A stretch of DNA of 64,000 bases, taken from positions 44,432 through 108,431 of IMG/VR virus record IMGVR_UViG_3300045978_000284; one strand, given 5' to 3'. Position 1 is the stretch's first letter. Every line of letters starts with the position of its first letter. Positions 4,580 through 63,971 of this stretch are shown here, in pieces. Source of the DNA: a virus. Both the position numbers and the translations under genes were made by a program. The notes under the pieces are model-generated. The model did no database searches. It was given only the letters and a program-made list of their open reading frames with translations, and was not told the origin of the DNA.

Positions 4580-5521
4580 ATGCCTCCGGCACGGCTCGAC
4601 CCACGTGATGTGCGTATCGACCCGCTGCTGTCGTCGATCTCGGTGGCGTATGTGAACCGGGCCTACATCGCCCCGGGGATCGCGCCGGTCATCCCGAGCG
4701 ACCTCGACGGCGGTCGGTACACGGAGTACAACCAGGCGGACTGGTTCCGGAACGAAGCGTCCAAGCGCGCGGCCGGCACGCGCTCGCGACGCGGCGAGTA
4801 CGGGATCACCTTCTCGACCTACTTCTGCGAGGAAGTGGCGTTCTCGCGGGAAATCCCGGACGAGATCCGGCAGAACGCGATGCAGCCGATCCGTCCCGAC
4901 ACCGACGCCACCAACTACGCCACGGACAAGGTCATGCTGGCGAAGGAGGTGCGGGTCGCCACCAAGATGCGGACGGCGGCCAACTGGCCCGGCTCGGTGG
5001 CCCTGACCGGCACCAACCGCTGGAACGACTACGCGAACAGCGATCCCATCTCTGACGTCGAGGCGGGGATCGACCTGATCCACGGCCGCACGGGGTACGA
5101 CGTCAACACGATGGTCCTGCCCCATCCGGTGTGGAAGAAGCTCAAGCATCACCCGGACATCATCGACCGCATCAAGTACAGCCAGCGCGGCTTCGTGAAC
5201 GTGGAGCTGCTGCAGGAGCTGTTCGAGGTCGAGCGGATCATGGTGGCCAAGCCCGTGTACACCCAGAGCAACGAAGGGCTGGCGGCCGGCGCCGAGACCT
5301 ACCAGTACGTGTGGGGCAAGGACGTCTGGCTCGGCTACATCACGGGCAATCCGGGCATCCAGGAACCGACGGCGATGTACCAGTTCGTGAGCGGCCAGCG
5401 GGCCACGCGCACCTGGCGGGAAGAGCCCGAGCACCAGGACGTGGTCGAGGCCTACGAGAAGGTGGACGAGAAGGTGATCAGCCAGCTGCTGGGCTATCTG
5501 ATCGCCACCGCGATCGACTAG
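4580..5521 (+). CDS. Major capsid protein, HK97-fold type
   Basis: A 313-residue protein and the best candidate for the shell subunit. It has the features of phage major capsid proteins annotated without a delta domain: an N-terminal segment leading into VSRE-like contacts (EVAFSREIPDEIR, about 90), a central P-domain helix with HPVWKKLKHHPDIIDRIKY (about 180-198) followed by G-FVNVELLQELFEVERIMVA, and a C-terminal beta strand ending in a conserved-looking LLGYLIATAID. Length fits the family. It follows scaffold and cement genes. GGGGAGAAAG precedes the ATG at modest distance. Confidence 0.85.
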   Translation: MPPARLDPRDVRIDPLLSSISVAYVNRAYIAPGIAPVIPSDLDGGRYTEYNQADWFRNEASKRAAGTRSRRGEYGITFSTYFCEEVAFSREIPDEIRQNAMQPIRPDTDATNYATDKVMLAKEVRVATKMRTAANWPGSVALTGTNRWNDYANSDPISDVEAGIDLIHGRTGYDVNTMVLPHPVWKKLKHHPDIIDRIKYSQRGFVNVELLQELFEVERIMVAKPVYTQSNEGLAAGAETYQYVWGKDVWLGYITGNPGIQEPTAMYQFVSGQRATRTWREEPEHQDVVEAYEKVDEKVISQLLGYLIATAID

Positions 5522-25143: not shown

Positions 25144-25749
25144 GTGGGGCCGGCGCCCGTGGACCTGAGCCTGATGCCCGCCTTCGGCCTGGAGCTGGAA
25201 CGCGTGCTCCCGACGATCGACCCGGTGAACGGCGATCGGCTCACGGTGGTGACGCCGGCGATGGCCGGAGCTGCCCTGGTGGCCTACTGGACGGTGAACC
25301 CGCCCCGGATCATCCGCCGCTGGTTCGACTACCCGAACGACAGCTGGCGGGGATACGTCCGGGAACGCCTGGCGACCCGGTGGACCCAGTGCGCGATCGT
25401 GGTCATCGAGGCCAACCCGGAGCCCGAGGACCCGCGCGACCTCGAGGAGCTGCCGGCCCGCGGGAGCCTCCTGCGCACGATCCGGTGCTACCAGCCCGAG
25501 GCGCCTGGCCAAGTCATGGTCCAAGACGTCTGGGGTGGGCACTTCGTGACGACCACGGTGACCCGCGCCCTCTGGGACCTCGGGATCCGTGCGACGGTGG
25601 GCAACATCATGCGGACGAACTGGGACTGGAAGCGCCGGCTCATCCGGGCTGGGATCCAGATCCAGGACTGGAACGGCCGGCGGAACATGGTCCAGTGGGT
25701 GATCCCCGAGCGGCCGCCGGCCGGCCGGCCCAGCTGGTGGGGCGAGTGA
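25144..25749 (+). CDS. Unknown late-cluster protein
   Basis: 201 residues from GTG 25144; an ATG at 25174 in the same frame is an alternative start. Contains AYWTVNPPRIIRRWFDYPND, a strand/helix alternation and DVWGGHFVTTTVTRALWDLG; C-terminus is Arg/Trp/Pro-rich. No recognised domain. The stop overlaps the GTG start of the ferritin-like gene that follows. Confidence 0.5.
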   Translation: MGPAPVDLSLMPAFGLELERVLPTIDPVNGDRLTVVTPAMAGAALVAYWTVNPPRIIRRWFDYPNDSWRGYVRERLATRWTQCAIVVIEANPEPEDPRDLEELPARGSLLRTIRCYQPEAPGQVMVQDVWGGHFVTTTVTRALWDLGIRATVGNIMRTNWDWKRRLIRAGIQIQDWNGRRNMVQWVIPERPPAGRPSWWGE

Positions 25750-26360
25750 TCCCCGCGGCGGAGGCCGCGGTGGTGGCCCGGCTCCTGCTGCGCGGGTCGG
25801 CGCTGGACGCCTACGCGGCCCACGCGAGCGGCTGGCTCGCGGATCGGCTGCCGGCCTTCGAGGCGGAACTGCGGTCCAACCAGGAGGACGAGCGCCGCCA
25901 TGCAGCCATCCAGGCCGAGCTGGCGGTCAGGCTCGACCCGGAGTGCCGCCCGGACGGTCAGGCCAGGCTTCTATTCGCCTCGTGGCGGGCCTGGGAGGCT
26001 CCAGGACGGCTCCTGATGCTGCACCTGGTTGAACGCATCGCCATGCTCTCGTTCGAGGTCCTGGGGCGGCGCCTGCGCCAGCTGGGGGCGCTGGACGAGG
26101 CACTCGCGGTCCTCGACATCGCCCGGGACGAGCGTCGGCACGTGCGGACCGGGCGGGACGCCCTCCTGGCAATCGGGCCGGTCCCCGCGGCCGCCGGCGT
26201 GTACCAGGCCATCCGGTCGGTGTACGCGGCGGATCCGCTCCTGGAGGTGGAGGCTCCGCGGGTCCTGGGAATCGGCCGGCTCACGGAGCTGGGTGACAGG
26301 GTGTGGGCCCGGTGGCAGAATGCTCGCGCGGGGAGTCTGGGAGACCACGGTGGCCCATAA
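25746..26360 (+). CDS. Ferritin-like four-helix diiron protein, copy 1
   Basis: 204 residues from the GTG at 25746, overlapping the previous stop; a longer upstream opening is out-of-frame overlap. Four long helices carry ferritin-like metal motifs: E49-D-E-R-R-H52 in helix 2, E96 (LVERIAML) in helix 3 and E129-R-R-H132 (IARDERRHVR) in helix 4. In helix 1 the expected Glu is Ser-18 (RGSALDAY), whereas the paralogue at 26729 has Glu-18 at the same spacing. It could therefore bind metal asymmetrically or be a partner subunit. The last codons overlap the tRNA-Met-like gene. Role unknown: iron storage, oxygenase/hydroxylase chemistry or a virion component are possible. Confidence 0.65.
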   Translation: MIPAAEAAVVARLLLRGSALDAYAAHASGWLADRLPAFEAELRSNQEDERRHAAIQAELAVRLDPECRPDGQARLLFASWRAWEAPGRLLMLHLVERIAMLSFEVLGRRLRQLGALDEALAVLDIARDERRHVRTGRDALLAIGPVPAAAGVYQAIRSVYAADPLLEVEAPRVLGIGRLTELGDRVWARWQNARAGSLGDHGGP

Positions 26361-26398
26361 CCATCGAGAAGCGGGTTCGACTCCCGCCCCCGTAACCA
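26327..26398 (+). tRNA. tRNA-Met-like (CAU), short D arm
   Basis: Anticodon arm GGTGG-CCCATAA-CCATC (26349-26365) gives anticodon CAU. Variable loop GAGAA, T arm GCGGG-TTCGACT-CCCGC (26371-26387), 3' acceptor strand CCCCGTA, discriminator A and encoded CCA (26396-26398). The 5' strand CGCGGGG (26327-26333) pairs with about six of seven acceptor bases. The D arm between them is too short for a standard cloverleaf, and position 33 is C instead of U. It overlaps the end of the upstream CDS. It may be degenerate or unusual. Confidence 0.5.
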
Positions 26399-26401
26399 GC
26401 T

Positions 26402-26476
26402 CGGGGCGTGGCGCAGAGGGAGCGCGCCTGGCCTGGGACCAGGAGGTCGCCGGTTCGAGTCCGGCCGCCCCGACCA
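26402..26476 (+). tRNA. tRNA-Pro (UGG)
   Basis: Full cloverleaf: acceptor CGGGGCG/CGCCCCG, D stem GCGC/GCGC, anticodon stem CCTGG/CCAGG with loop CCTGGGA (anticodon UGG), variable AGGTC, T arm GCCGG-TTCGAGT-CCGGC, discriminator A and encoded CCA at 26474-26476. Position 33 is C rather than the near-universal U, as in its neighbour. The next ORF starts one base after the CCA. Confidence 0.85.
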
Positions 26477-26477
26477 C

Positions 26478-26690
26478 ATGAAGGTCACCCAGTTCACGGC
26501 GGACCGCTCGGTCGAGGGCCAGATCACCTACCGGATCGACCTGGACGACGCCACCTTCCGCGAGCTGGTGTCCCTGAACCTGGACCAGCGCCCGATGGTG
26601 GCCGAGCTCTGGCGGGACTACGAGACCGACCAGGTGGAGATCTACACCGAGGACCAGCTCTGGGGCCGCCTGTCGGCGGTGCCTGTCTGA
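26478..26690 (+). CDS. Small unknown acidic protein
   Basis: 70 residues, ATG directly after the tRNA CCA end and no ribosome site, so initiation would depend on processing or leaderless-type translation. MKVTQFTADRSVEGQITYRI, then FRELVSLNLDQRPMVAEL. Acidic, mixed alpha/beta. No family recognised. Lies between the two ferritin-like genes. Confidence 0.5.
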   Translation: MKVTQFTADRSVEGQITYRIDLDDATFRELVSLNLDQRPMVAELWRDYETDQVEIYTEDQLWGRLSAVPV

Positions 26691-26728
26691 GGAACCCTCA
26701 AAACCCTCGAAACCATCCGGAGGCTCCC

Positions 26729-27298
26729 ATGCTGACTGACCAGATCCTCCACGGCTTCCTCTGGGACCAGGCGCGCGGCGAAGCCATCGGCCTTGGGCGG
26801 TTCGTGTACCTGCGGCGGAGCACCCGGCTCGGCGTCGAGGACCGGCAGCTCCTTGAGCGGCGGCTCGTAGACGAGGTGAACCACGGGGCCTGGCTCACGG
26901 CCCGGGCGCGGCACTACGGCCCGCGTCCTGTCCAGGGCGGCCCGGTCTGGGACACCTGCGAGCGGGACTACCACGGCCAGGTCGCCGGCGCGATCAGCCC
27001 GGAGGAGATGCTGGTGTACGCATACCTCCCGGAGCGCTTCGCCACCAGGGTCCTGCAGCGGGCCGCCGGCGACGTCCGGGTGCACGGCGACCGGGAGACG
27101 GCCGACCTCCTGGACCAGCTCGTCCTGGACGAGCAGCGCCACGTCCGGGAGAACGGCGCCCTCCTGCAGCGCTGGGTGGCCGACCCGGAGATCGGCCCCG
27201 GGATCCGGGCCGCCTGGCACGCAGCACTCCGGGGGAACTACCACAAGTCCCTGTTCTCGGCGCCCCTGCCCGTCGGCCAGCTCCCAGCCCAGCCATAG
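26729..27298 (+). CDS. Ferritin-like four-helix diiron protein, copy 2
   Basis: 189 residues from the ATG at 26729 after CCGGAGG; an upstream in-frame opening overlaps the tRNA and is rejected. It has a complete carboxylate diiron set: E18 in helix 1 (RGEAIGLGRF), E49-V-N-H52 in helix 2, E102 in helix 3 (LPERFATRVL) and E135-Q-R-H138 in helix 4 (LDEQRH). Spacing of E49/H52 is identical to copy 1. The architecture fits the ferritin-like superfamily (ferritin, rubrerythrin, MiaE-type hydroxylases). Its place beside tRNA genes makes tRNA hydroxylation one option; nothing fixes the substrate. Confidence 0.7.
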   Translation: MLTDQILHGFLWDQARGEAIGLGRFVYLRRSTRLGVEDRQLLERRLVDEVNHGAWLTARARHYGPRPVQGGPVWDTCERDYHGQVAGAISPEEMLVYAYLPERFATRVLQRAAGDVRVHGDRETADLLDQLVLDEQRHVRENGALLQRWVADPEIGPGIRAAWHAALRGNYHKSLFSAPLPVGQLPAQP

Positions 27299-27342
27299 CA
27301 GTCGGACCCAGTCGTACCCAGTCGGACCGGGTCCGACTGGGT
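27299..27342. repeat. Tandem decamers ending in a perfect palindrome
   Basis: Directly after the ferritin-like stop codon: CAGTCGGACC, CAGTCGTACC, CAGTCGGACC in tandem, then one G and the inverted copy. ACCCAGTCGGACC-G-GGTCCGACTGGGT is a perfect inverted repeat (27316-27342). It could be a terminator-like hairpin (no T tract) or a protein-binding site. Confidence 0.7.
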
Positions 27343-27600
27343 CTCGGCAAGCCAAGCCAAGCCAAGCCAAAGCCATAGCGTAGACGTAGGCGGCGCGAAA
27401 ACTGGAAGGTGGCGCCGCGTCCGCGTCCGCTCCGCTCCGCGCGCGCAAGGCGCCCGGAGCTTCGCGGGCGGAGCCCGGTCGGCCGCTGGCGCGGCGTAGA
27501 CGTAGGCGGCGGGCGGGCGGCGGGCTGGCGCCTGGACCGCGGCCCGCGGCCGCCGGTGCCCGGACCGCGGCGAAAAAACGTCGCGCCGTCGGTTCACCCC
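27343..27600. repeat. Repeat-rich non-coding region 1
   Basis: No convincing gene. Contains five near-tandem AGCCA words (27350-27376), then CGTAGGCGG at 27385 and 27501, each preceded by GTAGA. The first is followed by GGCGC...GGTGGCGCC, matching the shell of the promoter cassettes at 35077 and 39445 but without a good -35 box, so it looks like a decayed cassette. The remainder is CG-rich with several short palindromes. Confidence 0.6.
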
Positions 27601-27638
27601 TTGACACCTGTATCTCCCCGTGCGACATTGAACACATG
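27601..27638 (+). promoter_or_regulatory. Promoter with start codon at +1 (copy J)
   Basis: TTGACA (27601-27606), 17-base spacer, GACATT (27624-27629); the ATG of the next gene begins 7 bases after the -10 box, at the predicted transcription start. This is the closest to consensus -35 in the set. Confidence 0.65.
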
Positions 27639-28196
27639 CCGCACATGACGCGAATCGCCACTAACGCCCATGTGACGCGCGCGCCGTTCCCCGCGCGCAC
27701 TCCGCGCGCTACCGACTGCGAAATGACAATGCCGCGACTGAACCCGACCGCCGCCGCTCCCACGTCCGCCGCTCCCACGTCCGCCGCTCCCACGTCCGCC
27801 GCCGCCGTTGCCGCCGCAACGATCTGGCGCGAGCGGATGGAGCGGTACCTCGCCTCCGCCCGCGCCGATGCTGATCTGATCGCGGCGCGCCTCGGCGCCG
27901 AGCGCGCGATTCTCAAGTCCCTGCCCGCGACCTCGCCCGCACGCGACGATGTTGACCTCCGCGTGCGACGCCTCGCCGTTCGCCATGCCCGCGCTACCGA
28001 CCTCGTTTCGCGCCGCGTCGGCTGGCTTGAGCGCGCGACCGACGCGCTCAATCGCCTCGCGCCTCCGCCTCCGCCCGCGCGCCGCTCGCGTCCCACGTCC
28101 GCCAAACCCCGCCGCTCGCGCCCGACCTCCGCGCCCGCGCCCGCGCCCGACACCGCGCCCGCGCCCGCGCCCGCGCCCGAACCCGCCACCGTCTAA
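27636..28196 (+). CDS. Unknown Ala/Pro-rich helical protein
   Basis: 186 residues from the ATG at 27636, located at the predicted transcription start; a second in-frame ATG is at 27726. N-terminus low-complexity with three APTSA units encoded by CCCACGTCCGCCGCT-type repeats. Core about 63-140: TIWRERMERYLASARADADL and RRVGWLERATDALNRLA, helical. C-terminus is an Ala-Pro array. The core matches, by eye, the protein at 35236 (W-R-x-RM-x-x-Y ... WL-x-RA), which is also driven by a cassette promoter. Function unknown; nucleic-acid binding is possible given the Arg/Lys/Pro tail. Confidence 0.6.
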   Translation: MPHMTRIATNAHVTRAPFPARTPRATDCEMTMPRLNPTAAAPTSAAPTSAAPTSAAAVAAATIWRERMERYLASARADADLIAARLGAERAILKSLPATSPARDDVDLRVRRLAVRHARATDLVSRRVGWLERATDALNRLAPPPPPARRSRPTSAKPRRSRPTSAPAPAPDTAPAPAPAPEPATV

Positions 28197-28531
28197 CCCG
28201 CCTCACCGGGGGCGCGCGCGCGGAGTGCGCGCGCCCCTCCACTACTCGCCGCGTGACGACTACCCGGTAGACGTAGGAGTACTTCGTAGACATTCGTAGG
28301 CGGCTGGCGGCTGGCGGCTCGGCCCGGCAGCGCTGGCGGCAGCCCAGGACCTGGCCCAGGCCAAGGACCTCGGCGCCCAGCTCCCGCGCTCCGGCCGGCG
28401 TAGAAACCGTAGAAGCACGTAGGAGTACTTCGTAGACATTCGTAGGCGGCTGGCGGCTGGCGGCTCGGCCCCTGGCGGCTGGCCATCGGCCAAGCGGCCA
28501 AGCCCCGCCCCCAGCCCGGCCCCGGCCCCGC
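28197..28531. repeat. Repeat-rich non-coding region 2 with 55-bp direct repeat
   Basis: Contains a perfect 55-bp direct repeat at 28271-28325 and 28417-28471, starting ACGTAGGAGTACTTCGTAGA and including CGTAGGCGG and three GGCTGGC units. Around it are further GTAGA and GGCCAAG words. No gene seen on either strand; the reverse frames are open only because of composition. Confidence 0.75.
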
Positions 28532-28569
28532 TCGCAACCCGGCGGTGACACCGATACCTTATCACCATG
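28532..28569 (+). promoter_or_regulatory. Cassette promoter with GATA-N3-TATC operator (copy A)
   Basis: TCGCAA (28532-28537), 17-base spacer containing GGCGGTG, TACCTT (28555-28560). The palindrome GATACCTTATC (28553-28563) covers the -10 box. ATG at 28567 falls exactly 7 bases after the -10 box and is in frame with the gene at 28648. Confidence 0.7.
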
Positions 28570-28575
28570 CGCCCG

Positions 28576-28620
28576 CGTGCCGACCGTGCCGACCGTGCCG
28601 ACCGTGCCGACCGTGCCGAG
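28576..28620 (+). repeat. Tandem 9-bp repeat in leader
   Basis: Five tandem copies of CGTGCCGAC (last ends in G), between the cassette promoter and the ribosome site at 28634. If translated from the ATG at 28567 it would encode a repeated Arg-Ala-Asp tripeptide. Confidence 0.8.
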
Positions 28621-28647
28621 GCCGCAAGTCCACAGGAGGAGGCGACG

Positions 28648-28929
28648 ATGCCGATGACGGCGACTGACCTGGAAAACCTGGAGACCAACGTGGCGGAGCG
28701 ACGGAAGGTGGCCCAGTCCCAATTCAACAGGCTGTGGGAGGCGCTCGAGGAGGCAGCGACCGCGCCCCAGGCGCTGGTGTCGGGCCGGCTCGAAGCGGTG
28801 GCGCGCGCGCAGGAGGTGCTCAAGGACAGCCTGAACGCGGCGCAGGGCAAGGTCGCCGGCGTCCGGCTCCACGGCCAGCCGGTGCTCCGCAGGCCCCAGC
28901 GGGTGTACGACGCCGAGCGGTTCGCCTAA
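28648..28929 (+). CDS. Small unknown helical protein
   Basis: 93 residues from the ATG at 28648 after CAGGAGGAGG. An alternative in-frame start at 28567, at the predicted transcription start, would add a 27-residue repetitive leader. Helical: NLETNVAERRKVAQSQFNRL and RLEAVARAQEVLKDSLNAAQ, basic end RRPQRVYDAERFA. No family recognised. It is the only gene between two repeat-rich regions. Confidence 0.6.
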   Translation: MPMTATDLENLETNVAERRKVAQSQFNRLWEALEEAATAPQALVSGRLEAVARAQEVLKDSLNAAQGKVAGVRLHGQPVLRRPQRVYDAERFA

Positions 28930-29200
28930 GGCGGCTGGCGGCTGGCGGCGCGCGGGCCGGCTCTCGGCCCGCGGCGCCTACGAGCCAAGCAGGCGGCAGG
29001 CGGGCAGCGGGCGGCTGTCGGATCTCAGCTCGGACAGCTCTCCCGGGCTCGCCGAAATTCCAGGCGCCGGCCAAGCCATTCGGGCAGAGCCAACGGCGCG
29101 GTCGCGGCAGGACGAGACCAGTCGAGCGGCGTAGGCGGCGCCGAAATTCCAGGCGCCGGCCAAAGCCATCAGCACCCAATCAGCTCGGCGCCGGCCTCGC
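28930..29200. repeat. Repeat-rich non-coding region 3
   Basis: No gene seen. Starts with GGCGGCTGGC units, has a 24-bp direct repeat GCCGAAATTCCAGGCGCCGG-CCAA at 29051-29074 and 29140-29163, and CGTAGGCGG at 29130. The second repeat copy sits inside a GGCGCC...GGCGCC inverted repeat. Confidence 0.7.
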
Positions 29201-29238
29201 TCGCAACCTGGTGGTGACACCGATACCTTGTCACCATG
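29201..29238 (+). promoter_or_regulatory. Cassette promoter (copy B)
   Basis: TCGCAA (29201-29206), 17-base spacer with CTGGTGGTGACACC, TACCTT (29224-29229), degenerate palindrome GATACCTTGTC (29222-29232). ATG at 29236, exactly 7 bases after the -10 box and in frame with the gene at 29323. Confidence 0.7.
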
Positions 29239-29322
29239 TCGCCATGTCTCTACCTCGCCACGACGCCACGACGCGCGACCACCGCGCGCGAGCTGGCGAC
29301 AAATCCCCGAGTGGAGGCGCCA

Positions 29323-40235: not shown

Positions 40236-41102
40236 ATGACCCCGAGTCACTACATCGTGTGGGGACTCCTGTCCCTGCCGGTCAAGGCGAACCTCGCCGC
40301 GGCCGACGAGCGCCTGGAGCTCCGCAACCTGCACCGGCCCTGCCGGTCCCTGCTCAAGCAGACGCCGAACGTGTGCGCGGCGTGCGCCAAGCCGGTCCCT
40401 CCCACCATCGACGAGAAGCCGAACCCTGATCTCGTGAAGGGGTACGAGCAGGGCAAGGGCTCGTGGGTGATCCTCACCACGGAGGAGATCGCGGCGCTGG
40501 CCGATGAGAAGGACAAGACGGCCGAGGTCGTGGCCTTCATCCCGGCGGCGTCCATCGACCCGGTGTACTTCGCGAAGTCGTACAACCTGGAGCCGGCGGA
40601 CGCCCCGACGTCGAAGCCGTTCTCGCTGCTGCGGGCCACCATGGAGCGCGAGTCGATGGTGGCGATCATCGAGTACAAGGGCTCGGGCCGCGACAAGCTG
40701 GGGGCCATCCGCGTCACCCCGGCGGGCCTGATGCTCCACGAGCTGTACTACGCGGCCGAGGTCCGCGCCTTCTCGTCGAAGACCTGGAAGCCGGACATCC
40801 AGCTGTCCGAGGCCGAGCACCGTGCCGCCGCGGCGCTCCTGCAGCAGTTCAGGACGGAGTGGACCCCCGAGGCCTATGTGAACAAGTACAACGCCCGGGC
40901 CGCGGCTCTCATCCAGTCGAAGCAAGACGGCCAGGTCATCGAGGTCCAGGCGCCGACCCGACCGACCGCCAAGGTGGTCGATCTGGCGGATGCCCTCACC
41001 CAGTCCCTCGCGCTTCGGTCCGCGAAGGCGGCGGACGTAGACGCGCCGAAGCCGGCGGTGCCGGTCAAGGCGGGAAAGACGAAGAAAGGCCGTGCCGCGT
41101 AG
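40236..41102 (+). CDS. ku: Ku DNA-end-binding protein
   Basis: 288 residues from ATG 40236 after AAGGAGG; the in-frame start at 40170 lies in the previous gene. Ku-core landmarks: IVWGLLSLPVKANLA start, CxxC-containing insert, DLVKGYEQGKGSWVILTTEE, IDPVYFAKSYNLEPAD, PFSLLRATMERESMVAIIEY and a LGAIRVTPAGLMLHELYYAAEV block, all in bacterial-Ku order. The length matches bacterial Ku. Lys/Ala-rich tail at the end. Ku homodimers hold broken or terminal DNA ends for non-homologous end joining. The ligase at 49785 is the probable partner. Phage Ku has precedent (Omega and Corndog mycobacteriophages). Confidence 0.9.
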   Translation: MTPSHYIVWGLLSLPVKANLAAADERLELRNLHRPCRSLLKQTPNVCAACAKPVPPTIDEKPNPDLVKGYEQGKGSWVILTTEEIAALADEKDKTAEVVAFIPAASIDPVYFAKSYNLEPADAPTSKPFSLLRATMERESMVAIIEYKGSGRDKLGAIRVTPAGLMLHELYYAAEVRAFSSKTWKPDIQLSEAEHRAAAALLQQFRTEWTPEAYVNKYNARAAALIQSKQDGQVIEVQAPTRPTAKVVDLADALTQSLALRSAKAADVDAPKPAVPVKAGKTKKGRAA

Positions 41103-49483: not shown

Positions 49484-49804
49484 ATGCGGTGGCTGGCCGA
49501 GATCTACGCGCACCTTCGGGCCCGCCTTCTCGGTCCCGACCCATGGGCGCCGCGCGCGTGGCGTCGAGTCGACGATAGCGCTGGCTGCACCTGGGAGCCC
49601 TGGTCCGATGGGTGGGCGGTGGGGTTCAAGGCCACCTACCGGGGCGAGGTGCGCTACGTGGTCCTGAATCCCTCGTCGCACCCGGAGACCCCGAACGTCT
49701 TTCTCTACGAAGGCAGCGGCGACAACCCGATGGAACAGCCAGTGATTTACCTGGAGCCGTTCGCTCCGAGAAAGGAAGAGGCCAATGATCCTCAAGAGCA
49801 TTGA
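49484..49804 (+). CDS. Small unknown protein
   Basis: 106 residues from ATG 49484. RWLAEIYAHLRARLLGPDPW, GWAVGFKATYRGEVRYVVLN; the 3' end overlaps the ligase gene by 20 bases. No motif. Confidence 0.5.
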   Translation: MRWLAEIYAHLRARLLGPDPWAPRAWRRVDDSAGCTWEPWSDGWAVGFKATYRGEVRYVVLNPSSHPETPNVFLYEGSGDNPMEQPVIYLEPFAPRKEEANDPQEH

Positions 49805-50969
49805 GCTGGGCTACACGGCCGGGACCTCGGACAAGGTCTACCACCTGCGCCTCGAACAGGAGGGCGTCGAGTACGCCGTCAACGCGCTGTGGGGCCGCCG
49901 CGGATCGCTGCTGCGCGTCACGCCCAAGTACTCGGGTCGGGACGGCGACGTCGCCCGGGCCATGTGGGACCGGGTCCGCAACGAGAAGCTGTCCGAAGGC
50001 TATGTCGTCGAGCGTGATGACGCCGCGCCGGGCCCGTCCGCAGCGGTGGCCGTAGAAGGCCACCATCGGGTGGCAGCCCGGGCCATGCCTGCCGCCCACG
50101 CCAAGGCCGAGCTCGAGGAGAACGACACGCGGATGCTGATCGAGGGACGTGTTCTCCCCTGGCTCCCGTCGGACGTCGAGCCGTCCCAGCTGGAGCAGCT
50201 GATCGTCGATCCGGCCTGGATGCTCCAGGAGAAGGTCGATGGGATTCACCTGATCCTGGACGTCCGCAACCACGTGGTGACGGCCACCAACAAGAAGGGG
50301 ATGCCCTACGCCATCCCGGAGGTCCTCGGCCGCCACGTCATCACCACCATGCCGGACGGGCTGTGGGACGGCGAGTGGCTCGCCAGGCCCCAGCAGTTCG
50401 TCGTGTTCGACCTACTGCGCGGGCCCGCCGGTGATCTGCGGGGTGAACCCTGCGAGGAGCGCTGGCGCTCCCTGACCAACCTGCTCATCAAGGCGCCGGC
50501 GTGCCTGGGTCCGCGCGTCTCCATCGTGTCCAGCCCCGGGCGCCTGGAGAAACACAAGCGCGGCTTCCTGGCCGAGCTGCACCGCCAGGCCGCGGAGGGC
50601 GCCATCTTCAAGCGCGCGCTGGCGCCCTACCGTCCTGGCGCCGCGGGCGACATGCTCCGTCTCAAGTTCCGGAAGCGAGCCGACGTCATCCTCCAGCTGC
50701 GGACGGGCGACACCAAGGCGAGCGCCGAGATGTTCGTCATGCACGAGGGCAAGCCGTTCCACGTCGGGACGGTCGCGGCCCGCACGTTCTTCCGGCGCTT
50801 GCAGGTCGGATCGGTCCACGTGGCCGAGGTGGAGTACCTGAGCGCCAGCGATAGCTACGCCTTGGCCCAGGTCGTGATCCTGCGGCTGCGCACCGACAAG
50901 GCGCCCGAACAGTGCACGCGCGACCAGATCGTGATCGGCAAGCGCTACCGGACCGCGGGTGGCCAATGA
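49785..50969 (+). CDS. WGR-domain ATP-dependent DNA ligase
   Basis: 394 residues. Residues 1-70: WGR domain with W36-G37-R38 (DNA or nucleotide-end binding fold). Residues about 125-390: nucleotidyltransferase ligase with motif I EKVDG (Lys-150 nucleophile), LWDGEW (motif III type), EGAIFKR (motif IV) and LRLKFRKRAD (motif V). All main catalytic residues appear present. It seals DNA nicks or ends with ATP. With the Ku protein at 40236 it would make a two-gene NHEJ system. WGR fused to a ligase is unusual, since the domain is best known from PARPs and some repair proteins. Confidence 0.85.
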   Translation: MILKSIELGYTAGTSDKVYHLRLEQEGVEYAVNALWGRRGSLLRVTPKYSGRDGDVARAMWDRVRNEKLSEGYVVERDDAAPGPSAAVAVEGHHRVAARAMPAAHAKAELEENDTRMLIEGRVLPWLPSDVEPSQLEQLIVDPAWMLQEKVDGIHLILDVRNHVVTATNKKGMPYAIPEVLGRHVITTMPDGLWDGEWLARPQQFVVFDLLRGPAGDLRGEPCEERWRSLTNLLIKAPACLGPRVSIVSSPGRLEKHKRGFLAELHRQAAEGAIFKRALAPYRPGAAGDMLRLKFRKRADVILQLRTGDTKASAEMFVMHEGKPFHVGTVAARTFFRRLQVGSVHVAEVEYLSASDSYALAQVVILRLRTDKAPEQCTRDQIVIGKRYRTAGGQ

Positions 50970-62123: not shown

Positions 62124-63971
62124 ATGGCCAAGAAGAAGGCGGACCTCGAACCCGAAGTGACCCGTGGCCCCGTGTGTTTTGACGGCCTGGGCGAGCCCAT
62201 GCCCCCGGCGGTTGTCCCGATCTCTCAGGTCCATGCGATCCCGCGGGCGGTGATCGACGCGGACGCCGACGCCCAGCTGGCGGCCAGCATCCGCGACCAT
62301 GGCCTGTTTCACCCCATCACGCTCCGGCTCCGCGGCGACAACGAGTACGAGGTGGTGGCGGGCGCCCGGCGCTTCCGGGCCATGACGCTGCTCGGCCTCG
62401 AGGAGATCCCGGCGCACTGGTCGGTCATCCGCGCCCTGACCGATCAGGACACGCTGATGATCCGCCATCTGGAGAACCTCAACCGGATGGCGCTGCACCC
62501 CATCGAGGCGCTGCGGGACTACGAGGCGCTGATCGAGAGCGGCATGACGATCGCCGACGTGTCGCAGCGGACAGGCCAGCCGGTCCGCACCATCGAGCGC
62601 ACCCTGCGACTGGCCACCCTGACCCCGACGTCGCGCCAGGCCTTCATCGAGCGCCGCATCGTGCCCGAGGTGGCCTCCCAGCTGGCCCGGATCGTCGATC
62701 CGGTCGGCCAGGCGGCGACCCTCAAGTACGCCCTGACCGGCACCTATCTCTTCGCCGGGCAGGAGCGGCGCGACTTCATCGCCCACCAGATCCCGACGCC
62801 GTGGGACGTGGCGCGCCACATCCGGGAGCGTGTCCTGCTCTCGCTGGGCGTCGCCCCCTTCGACACCGGCATCGAGATCGCCGGCGTCGGTCCGTGCACG
62901 GTCTGCCCGAAGCGCTCCGGGAACCAGGCGGCGCTCTTCGATTTCAAGCAGGAGGAGCTGACGGAGAACCTGTGCCTGGACGCGCCGTGCTATGCCCGGA
63001 AGGCCGCCGCGGCCGCCGAGGCGCGGGCCGAAGCGCTCAAGGCCGAGGGCACCAAGGTCATCACGCCGGCCCAGCTGAAGAAGGCCGAGCGCCAGGCGGT
63101 CGACGAGAAGAAGATCGGGTACACGGGGACGCCCCTCGACGCGCACCGCGGCGGGTCGGGCGGCAACACCTACATCGAGGACCTGGGCGAGTTCCACACC
63201 ACCAAGTGCCTGGCGGCGTGCCCGGACCATCGCTTCGTCAACCAGGGCGACAAGGTCCAGGAGATCTGCCTGAACCAGAAGTGCCTCGCGACCCTGCTGC
63301 GCCTGTCCGCCAAGCGCGCGGCCGCCCCCGCGTCCGCCGCGGCCCATGATGACGTCTCCGAGGAGGAGCGCCGCAAGCAGGCCAAGGCGCGCCGTGACCA
63401 GCGCAAGGAAACGCTCCAGGGCTACGCCGCGGGAGCGCTCGACAAGTGGCTCGTCCCGACGGTGGGTGCTGCGCTGCGCTCGAAGGCCAAGGTGCCGACC
63501 GACAAGCCGATGCTCGCCATCTTGAAGCTGGCCCTACTGATCTCCCTGGAGAACTGGCACGCGGGCGCTGCCGCCACCATCACGGCGGACGACCTCAAGG
63601 CCGCGCTCGGGTGGGCCCCCAAGCACGGCTGGGGCGCGTCGCTGCCGGGCGAGCTGTGGGAGCGCCTGGACTCGATGTCGCCGGCCAAGCTCGTGGCCGG
63701 GCTCGCCGTGGTCCTGCCGGCCCTGATGCCGAGCCGCGACAGCGCCATCCTCCGTGCGGTCGGCGCGGTGGTCGGCGTCGACGCCATGAAGCAGTACCGG
63801 CTCTCGTCGGACGACCTGCACCCCTACCAGAAGCCCGAGCTGACGGCCCTGGCCAAGTCCTTCAAGATCGAGCTGCCCGAGGAGGCCGACAAGGGCGCGA
63901 TGATCGACGCCATCGCCAAGGCCCTCAAGCCCGGGATGTTGCCGGTGGAGTGGGAGAAGGTGATCGACTGA
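62124..63971 (+). CDS. ParB-like nuclease/partition-domain protein
   Basis: 615 residues from ATG 62124 after GAAAGGA. ParB N-terminal domain with IPRAVIDADADAQLAASIRD, ITLRLRGDNEYEVVAGARRF-RA and a helix-turn-helix like KorB/ParB (IADVSQRTGQPVRTIERTLR). Residues about 240-300 have CTVCPKRSGNQA and a further Cys pair typical of long phage ParB-like proteins; a Lys/Glu-rich middle and a helical C-terminus follow. Such long versions occur in phages and may regulate transcription or act on DNA rather than partition. No ParA seen here. Confidence 0.8.
   Translation: MAKKKADLEPEVTRGPVCFDGLGEPMPPAVVPISQVHAIPRAVIDADADAQLAASIRDHGLFHPITLRLRGDNEYEVVAGARRFRAMTLLGLEEIPAHWSVIRALTDQDTLMIRHLENLNRMALHPIEALRDYEALIESGMTIADVSQRTGQPVRTIERTLRLATLTPTSRQAFIERRIVPEVASQLARIVDPVGQAATLKYALTGTYLFAGQERRDFIAHQIPTPWDVARHIRERVLLSLGVAPFDTGIEIAGVGPCTVCPKRSGNQAALFDFKQEELTENLCLDAPCYARKAAAAAEARAEALKAEGTKVITPAQLKKAERQAVDEKKIGYTGTPLDAHRGGSGGNTYIEDLGEFHTTKCLAACPDHRFVNQGDKVQEICLNQKCLATLLRLSAKRAAAPASAAAHDDVSEEERRKQAKARRDQRKETLQGYAAGALDKWLVPTVGAALRSKAKVPTDKPMLAILKLALLISLENWHAGAAATITADDLKAALGWAPKHGWGASLPGELWERLDSMSPAKLVAGLAVVLPALMPSRDSAILRAVGAVVGVDAMKQYRLSSDDLHPYQKPELTALAKSFKIELPEEADKGAMIDAIAKALKPGMLPVEWEKVID

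What the first reader, a model, noticed from the sequence alone, without database searches (positions are those of the whole stretch)
25746..27298. Pair of phage ferritin-like diiron proteins flanking tRNA genes
Two adjacent proteins share a four-helix layout with E49-x-x-H52 at identical positions, a helix-3 Glu (E96/E102) and a second ExxH (E129/H132 and E135/H138). Copy 2 keeps Glu-18 for a full six-ligand site; copy 1 has Ser-18. I know of no standard phage gene of this kind. Possibilities: iron handling in the virion or cell, an oxygenase, or a MiaE-like tRNA hydroxylase, given the two tRNA genes between them.
Basis: partly seen in the sequence, partly recalled or inferred. Interest (0 to 1): 0.85.

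Follow-up and report, generated by a model that had tools for sequence, protein, structure and literature searches.

The report
Two divergent ferritin-like proteins in phage
A little-known bacteriophage carries two neighbouring genes for proteins built like iron-binding, oxygen-activating enzymes (the ferritin-like family); the resemblance is real, but the pair has no close relatives and its exact job is unknown.

Summary
Copy 2 has the full E18 / E49xxH52 / E102 / E135xxH138 set; copy 1 has the same pattern with Ser at 18.

Ferritin-like membership is supported by three lines. Copy 2 matches Pfam Ferritin (E=2.7e-4) and NCBIfam COQ7 (E=1.8e-4), both below curated cut-offs. Weak PDB sequence hits are mostly diiron helix-bundle proteins in the right register; reversed sequences hit none of these. 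A two-row AlphaFold model of copy 1 (pLDDT 73, pTM 0.70) is a four-helix bundle whose 50 listed structural neighbours are essentially all ferritin-like, led by aldehyde-deformylating oxygenase.

No named family is met. Both copies lack the E-x6-Y tyrosines of bacterioferritin, rubrerythrin and COQ7. No relative was found in the collections searched. The MiaE idea is not supported: no profile match, and the phage tRNAs lack A36-A37. One "tRNA" is doubtful and overlaps copy 1.

Best guess: a pair of O2-activating diiron proteins acting in the infected cell, copy 2 having the complete site. The substrate is unknown. Phages are already known to encode ferritin-like proteins.

The parts
25746..26360 (+). 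Copy 1: ferritin-like protein, 204 aa, GTG start; predicted helices 4-34 (S18), 36-63 (E49,H52), 85-112 (E96), 116-143 (E129,H132), plus C-terminal helices 149-194
26729..27298 (+). Copy 2: ferritin-like protein, 189 aa, full six-ligand set E18, E49, H52, E102, E135, H138; ATG start with GGAGG upstream
26478..26690 (+). 70-aa gene between the copies, starting 1 nt after the CCA end of tRNA-Pro; no family match, no cysteine (so not a ferredoxin or rubredoxin)
26402..26476 (+). tRNA-Pro(UGG), CCA encoded; anticodon loop reads CCUGGGA
26325..26398 (+). doubtful tRNA-Met(CAU)-like element, overlapping the 3' end of copy 1; found by ARAGORN only
25159..25749 (+). preceding gene (unknown function, 196 aa), stop overlaps the start of copy 1 (GTGA), suggesting translational coupling
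27299..27339 (+). strong hairpin immediately after copy 2 (z = -4.8 for 27290-27370), no T tract; possible end of the transcription unit

Best explanation
The two genes encode divergent members of the ferritin-like (carboxylate diiron, four-helix bundle) superfamily, placed at the end of the phage's structural-gene block. Copy 2 binds two metal ions, most likely iron, through E18, E49, H52, E102, E135 and H138 and uses O2 (or peroxide) to carry out an oxidation in the infected cell, more like a small diiron oxidase/oxygenase than a storage cage. Copy 1 has the same fold with one ligand replaced by serine, and may act as a partner or altered-site subunit. Shown by computation: the genes, the residues, superfamily membership, the predicted fold of copy 1. 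Inferred: metal binding, redox activity, partnership of the two. Unknown: substrate and electron donor. The confidence given is for the whole statement including the oxidase/oxygenase reading; superfamily membership alone I put at about 0.93.
For: Pfam Ferritin E=2.7e-4 and NCBIfam COQ7 E=1.8e-4 for copy 2. Copy 2 spacings E-31-E-53-E-33-E resemble human COQ7 E60/E90/E142/E178, i.e. 30/52/36 (PMC9774615). PDB hits of copy 2: toluene-4-monooxygenase and designed diiron bundles, with ExxH matched to ExxH. Profile of both copies: acyl-ACP desaturases, the 'ER.A ... GD ... DE.RH' stretch in register. Copy 1: EncC (ferritin-like encapsulin cargo) over helices A-B and phage RNR beta over the two ExxH motifs, E=0.14. 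Reversed sequences give no such hits. Model of copy 1: pLDDT 73, pTM 0.70, four long helices each holding the expected site residue. Its top PDB neighbours are ADO (TM up to 0.65), R2lox, desaturase, toluene/o-xylene monooxygenase, PaaA/PaaC and bacterioferritin. A double ExxH, with His in both helices B and D, is the oxygenase/bacterioferritin pattern rather than that of classical ferritin (established knowledge). A hairpin after copy 2 suggests the pair closes a transcription unit.
Against: No relatives were found, so conservation of the ligands could not be tested. Foldseek E-values do not fall below 0.001, only one of five AlphaFold models of copy 1 is confident, and copy 2 alone folds poorly (pLDDT 43). 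The buried tyrosines (E-x6-Y) found in bacterioferritin, rubrerythrin and COQ7 are absent from both copies. No ferredoxin or reductase partner gene was recognised among the proteins scanned or the Cys-rich ORFs read by eye. Copy 1 lacks one ligand, so its metal site may be impaired. Ferroxidase/ROS roles fit almost equally well.
Confidence: 0.5

Rival explanations
1. Iron or reactive-oxygen handling: the pair works like rubrerythrin, Dps or bacterioferritin, oxidising Fe(II) with O2 or peroxide to protect phage DNA or the infected cell.
For: The same ligand set occurs in bacterioferritin and rubrerythrin (PMC3401498); copy 2 hits Pfam Ferritin; weak structural neighbours of copy 2 are bacterioferritin and sulerythrin; phages carry Dps and Mn-catalase with this proposed role (PMC8008677).
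Against: E-x6-Y tyrosines absent; no rubrerythrin, Dps or bacterioferritin model matched; the structural neighbours of copy 1 are mainly oxygenases; two unequal copies are not needed for simple detoxification.
Confidence: 0.28
2. Virion-associated or structural role: helical bundle proteins built into the particle or tail, with metal only for stability.
For: Position directly after the tail and tail-fibre-like genes, on the same strand.
Against: Nearly all genes of this phage lie on this strand, so position says little; the complete ligand set of copy 2 argues for redox chemistry.
Confidence: 0.12
3. MiaE-like tRNA hydroxylase acting on tRNA position 37.
For: tRNA genes lie between the two copies; MiaE is a member of the superfamily (PMC3401498).
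Against: No MiaE model matched; MiaE structures are absent from the 50 best matches; the phage tRNAs have U36-A37 and G36-G37, not A36-A37; one of the tRNAs is doubtful.
Confidence: 0.03
4. Chance resemblance of helical, Arg/Glu-rich proteins to diiron motifs.
For: Antisense frames also match the bare regex; shuffles match in 0.2-0.7% of cases.
Against: Two adjacent genes both match; two independent profile libraries hit the same superfamily; decoys are clean; predicted fold and structural neighbours agree.
Confidence: 0.05

Closest known systems
COQ7 (demethoxyubiquinone hydroxylase)
   Same: E...ExxH...E...ExxH with similar spacings; the only NCBIfam hit of copy 2
   Different: 21 bits against a cut-off of 180; no E-x6-Y tyrosines
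Cyanobacterial aldehyde-deformylating oxygenase (ADO)
   Same: closest structural neighbour of the copy 1 model (TM up to 0.65); ligands E32, E60, H63, E115, E144, H147 (PMC4286721)
   Different: about 20% identity, no profile hit; copy 1 has Ser where the helix-A Glu would be; phage, not cyanobacterial
Acyl-ACP desaturase / toluene monooxygenase hydroxylase
   Same: helix C-D stretch 'ER.A...GD...DE.RH' matches in register
   Different: much larger proteins; E-values 0.04-0.7 only
Bacterioferritin, rubrerythrin, archaeoferritin
   Same: Glu in helices A and C, ExxH in B and D
   Different: E-x6-Y missing in both copies; no profile of these matched
Phage-borne ferritin-like proteins (Dps, Mn-catalase, rubrerythrin-like, RNR beta)
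   Same: precedent for the superfamily in phages (PMC8008677; BFVD hits)
   Different: none is detectably similar to this pair in sequence

Membership tests
Ferritin-like (diiron four-helix) superfamily | four-helix bundle with site residues in helices A-D | tested here: met
   copy 1 model H4-34, 36-63, 85-112, 116-143, structural neighbours; for copy 2 only helices B-D appear, in a poor model
Ferritin-like (diiron four-helix) superfamily | E / ExxH / E / ExxH ligand set | tested here: met
   copy 2 complete; copy 1 five of six, with S18
Ferritin-like (diiron four-helix) superfamily | significant similarity to a family profile | tested here: inconclusive
   copy 2 Pfam Ferritin 21.3 bits (cut-off 24.5), E=2.7e-4; NCBIfam COQ7 E=1.8e-4; copy 1 none
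Ferritin-like (diiron four-helix) superfamily | binds two metal ions | not testable with these tools
   needs purified protein
Bacterioferritin/rubrerythrin/archaeoferritin | E-x6-Y in helices A and C | tested here: not met
   copy 2 has F25 and L109, copy 1 has A25 and F103 (sequences); motif from PMC3401498
COQ7 | E-X6-Y-X22-ExxH-X48-E-X6-Y-X28-ExxH and NCBIfam cut-off of 180 bits | tested here: not met
   no tyrosines at those places; 21.2 bits
MiaE | MiaE profile match | tested here: not met
   no MiaE model among Pfam or NCBIfam hits up to E=10
ADO | profile match and six ligands | tested here: not met
   structural neighbour only, no profile hit; S18 in copy 1
RNR beta subunit | profile match, and an RNR alpha gene | tested here: not met
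   PHROG 6799 E=0.14 only; no RNR gene among the proteins scanned with Pfam, which is not all of them

The most novel reading that the evidence does not exclude
The two proteins form a heteromeric diiron oxygenase of a new family, one complete and one altered subunit, which modifies a host or phage molecule (for instance a lipid, DNA base or cofactor) during infection.
Probability: 0.2. Interest if true: 0.7.

Novelty: new variant of a known kind. Interest (0 to 1): 0.42.

Why it matters
Phage-borne diiron proteins are known mainly as Dps, Mn-catalase and RNR beta. A neighbouring pair outside all named families, with one complete and one altered site and no detectable relatives, would add a new branch to a superfamily whose members do very different chemistry. 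Its activity is directly testable by metal analysis and oxygen-consumption assays.

Tried and rejected
Relatives of either protein: single-sequence scans of IMG/VR with each copy and of GTDB genomes with copy 2, scans of both with a two-row alignment, tblastn of phages (both copies) and plasmids (copy 2), a degenerate DNA motif scan for DE[Q/R/H]RHVR (45 hits, inspected by eye, none ferritin-like), and 22 records sharing the capsid gene: nothing. These scans rely on short exact peptide patterns and tblastn, so distant relatives can be missed. Of 30 genes at window 11-31382, compared with fetched pieces of capsid-related records, only the capsid and two nearby genes had relatives other than the near-identical record L003, so synteny could not help; L003 ends inside the tape-measure gene. 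A search with a tail protein also gave nothing. The hydrophobic-face test was only partly supportive: most ligands face the apolar side, but E96 of copy 1 and H52 of copy 2 do not. The MiaE/tRNA link was considered and rejected. The bare-regex argument was rejected as evidence because antisense frames match too.

Full report
What is there. The window is bases 44432-108431 of a 108,431-base virus record. The phage has 69% GC, a Phage_cap_E capsid gene at 4580-5521 (36% identical to Arthrobacter phage capsids), Mu-like portal and protease genes, RecT, Ku and ParB genes. After the tape-measure and tail-fibre-like genes, on the same strand, come an unknown gene (25159-25749), copy 1 (25746-26360), a doubtful tRNA-Met, a sound tRNA-Pro, a 70-aa gene and copy 2 (26729-27298), followed by a strong hairpin (z=-4.8).

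The observation. Codon usage supports both frames. The pattern on its own is not conclusive in such a GC-rich genome, because antisense frames also produce it, but among 149 called genes only copy 2 has all six ligands and only copies 1, 2 and one unrelated protein have five.

Superfamily. Copy 2 matches Pfam Ferritin at E=2.7e-4 (21.3 bits, curated cut-off 24.5) and NCBIfam COQ7 at E=1.8e-4 (21.2 bits, cut-off 180). These are superfamily signals, not family membership. PDB sequence hits for copy 2 are mostly toluene-4-monooxygenase and designed diiron proteins, with the ExxH motifs aligned to ExxH; all have E-values of 0.1 or more, apart from one at 0.097. The two-row profile finds acyl-ACP desaturases, in which Glu of 'ERA' and of 'DEKRH' fall on E102/E96 and E135/E129 (E=0.04-0.7). 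Copy 1 matches EncC, a ferritin-like encapsulin cargo, in helices A-B (E=0.09) and a phage RNR beta family across both ExxH motifs (E=0.14). Reversed sequences give no PDB hit for copy 2, one unrelated hit for copy 1, and no diiron family in Pfam.

Structure. AlphaFold with a two-row alignment gives copy 1 a four-helix bundle (pLDDT 73, pTM 0.70); only the best of five models is confident. The helices carry S18, E49/H52, E96 and E129/H132. The 50 matches listed in the PDB are essentially all ferritin-like proteins: aldehyde-deformylating oxygenase first (best TM 0.65), then R2-like oxidase, desaturase, toluene/o-xylene monooxygenase, PaaA/PaaC, ferritin and bacterioferritin. Foldseek E-values are only 0.04-0.7, so this supports the fold, not a family. 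Copy 2 on its own folds poorly, with helices B, C and D visible.

Family tests. Copy 2 spacings (31, 53, 33) are close to human COQ7 (30, 52, 36; PMC9774615), but the tyrosines of the E-x6-Y motifs that mark COQ7, bacterioferritin, rubrerythrin and archaeoferritin (PMC3401498) are missing in both copies. MiaE has no profile or listed structural match. tRNAs modified by MiaE carry A36-A37 (established knowledge), whereas these have U36-A37 and G36-G37. Rfam recognises only the tRNA-Pro.

Function. The double ExxH set and the structural neighbours favour an O2-activating diiron protein. A role in iron or peroxide handling fits almost as well, and is the role proposed for Dps and Mn-catalase of gut phages (PMC8008677). 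The close packing of the genes and the hairpin suggest that the two proteins are made together; whether they form one complex is inference. Copy-to-copy similarity is marginal, so recent duplication is not shown.

Relatives. None were found in the collections searched (and the motif scan). Verdict: a genuine, divergent, paired phage member of a known superfamily; function open.

Noticed in passing
26325-26476: Both tRNA-like genes read C at position 33 of the anticodon loop (CCCAUAA, CCUGGGA) where U is nearly universal; anticodon-loop changes in phage tRNAs have been linked to escape from host anticodon nucleases (PMC10264068). The Met-like one has a C1:A72 end like an initiator tRNA but a stunted D arm.
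   Followed up: partly
27378-29260: Repeat-rich stretch after copy 2, e.g. two perfect 55-nt copies at 28271 and 28417, 'GCGTAGACGTAGGCGGCG' copies at 27378 and 27494, and 79-nt repeats at 28512 and 29181.
   Followed up: no
40236-41102: Ku-family gene, with a weak ATP-dependent ligase match at 49785-50969.
   Followed up: no
L028:10598-12847: Protein with a phage DAM-like domain and a GNAT-like domain and a weak LAGLIDADG match between them; possible DNA modification gene carrying an intein or homing element.
   Followed up: no
L029:532-2934: 800-aa gene with a LAGLIDADG endonuclease domain in its middle.
   Followed up: no
L030:1451-4594: 1047-aa protein with a short PI3/PI4-kinase-like match near its C-terminus.
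   Followed up: no
62124-63971 and L028:272-1174: At least two ParB-like genes in one phage, plus a weak third (L028:12902-13639).
   Followed up: no
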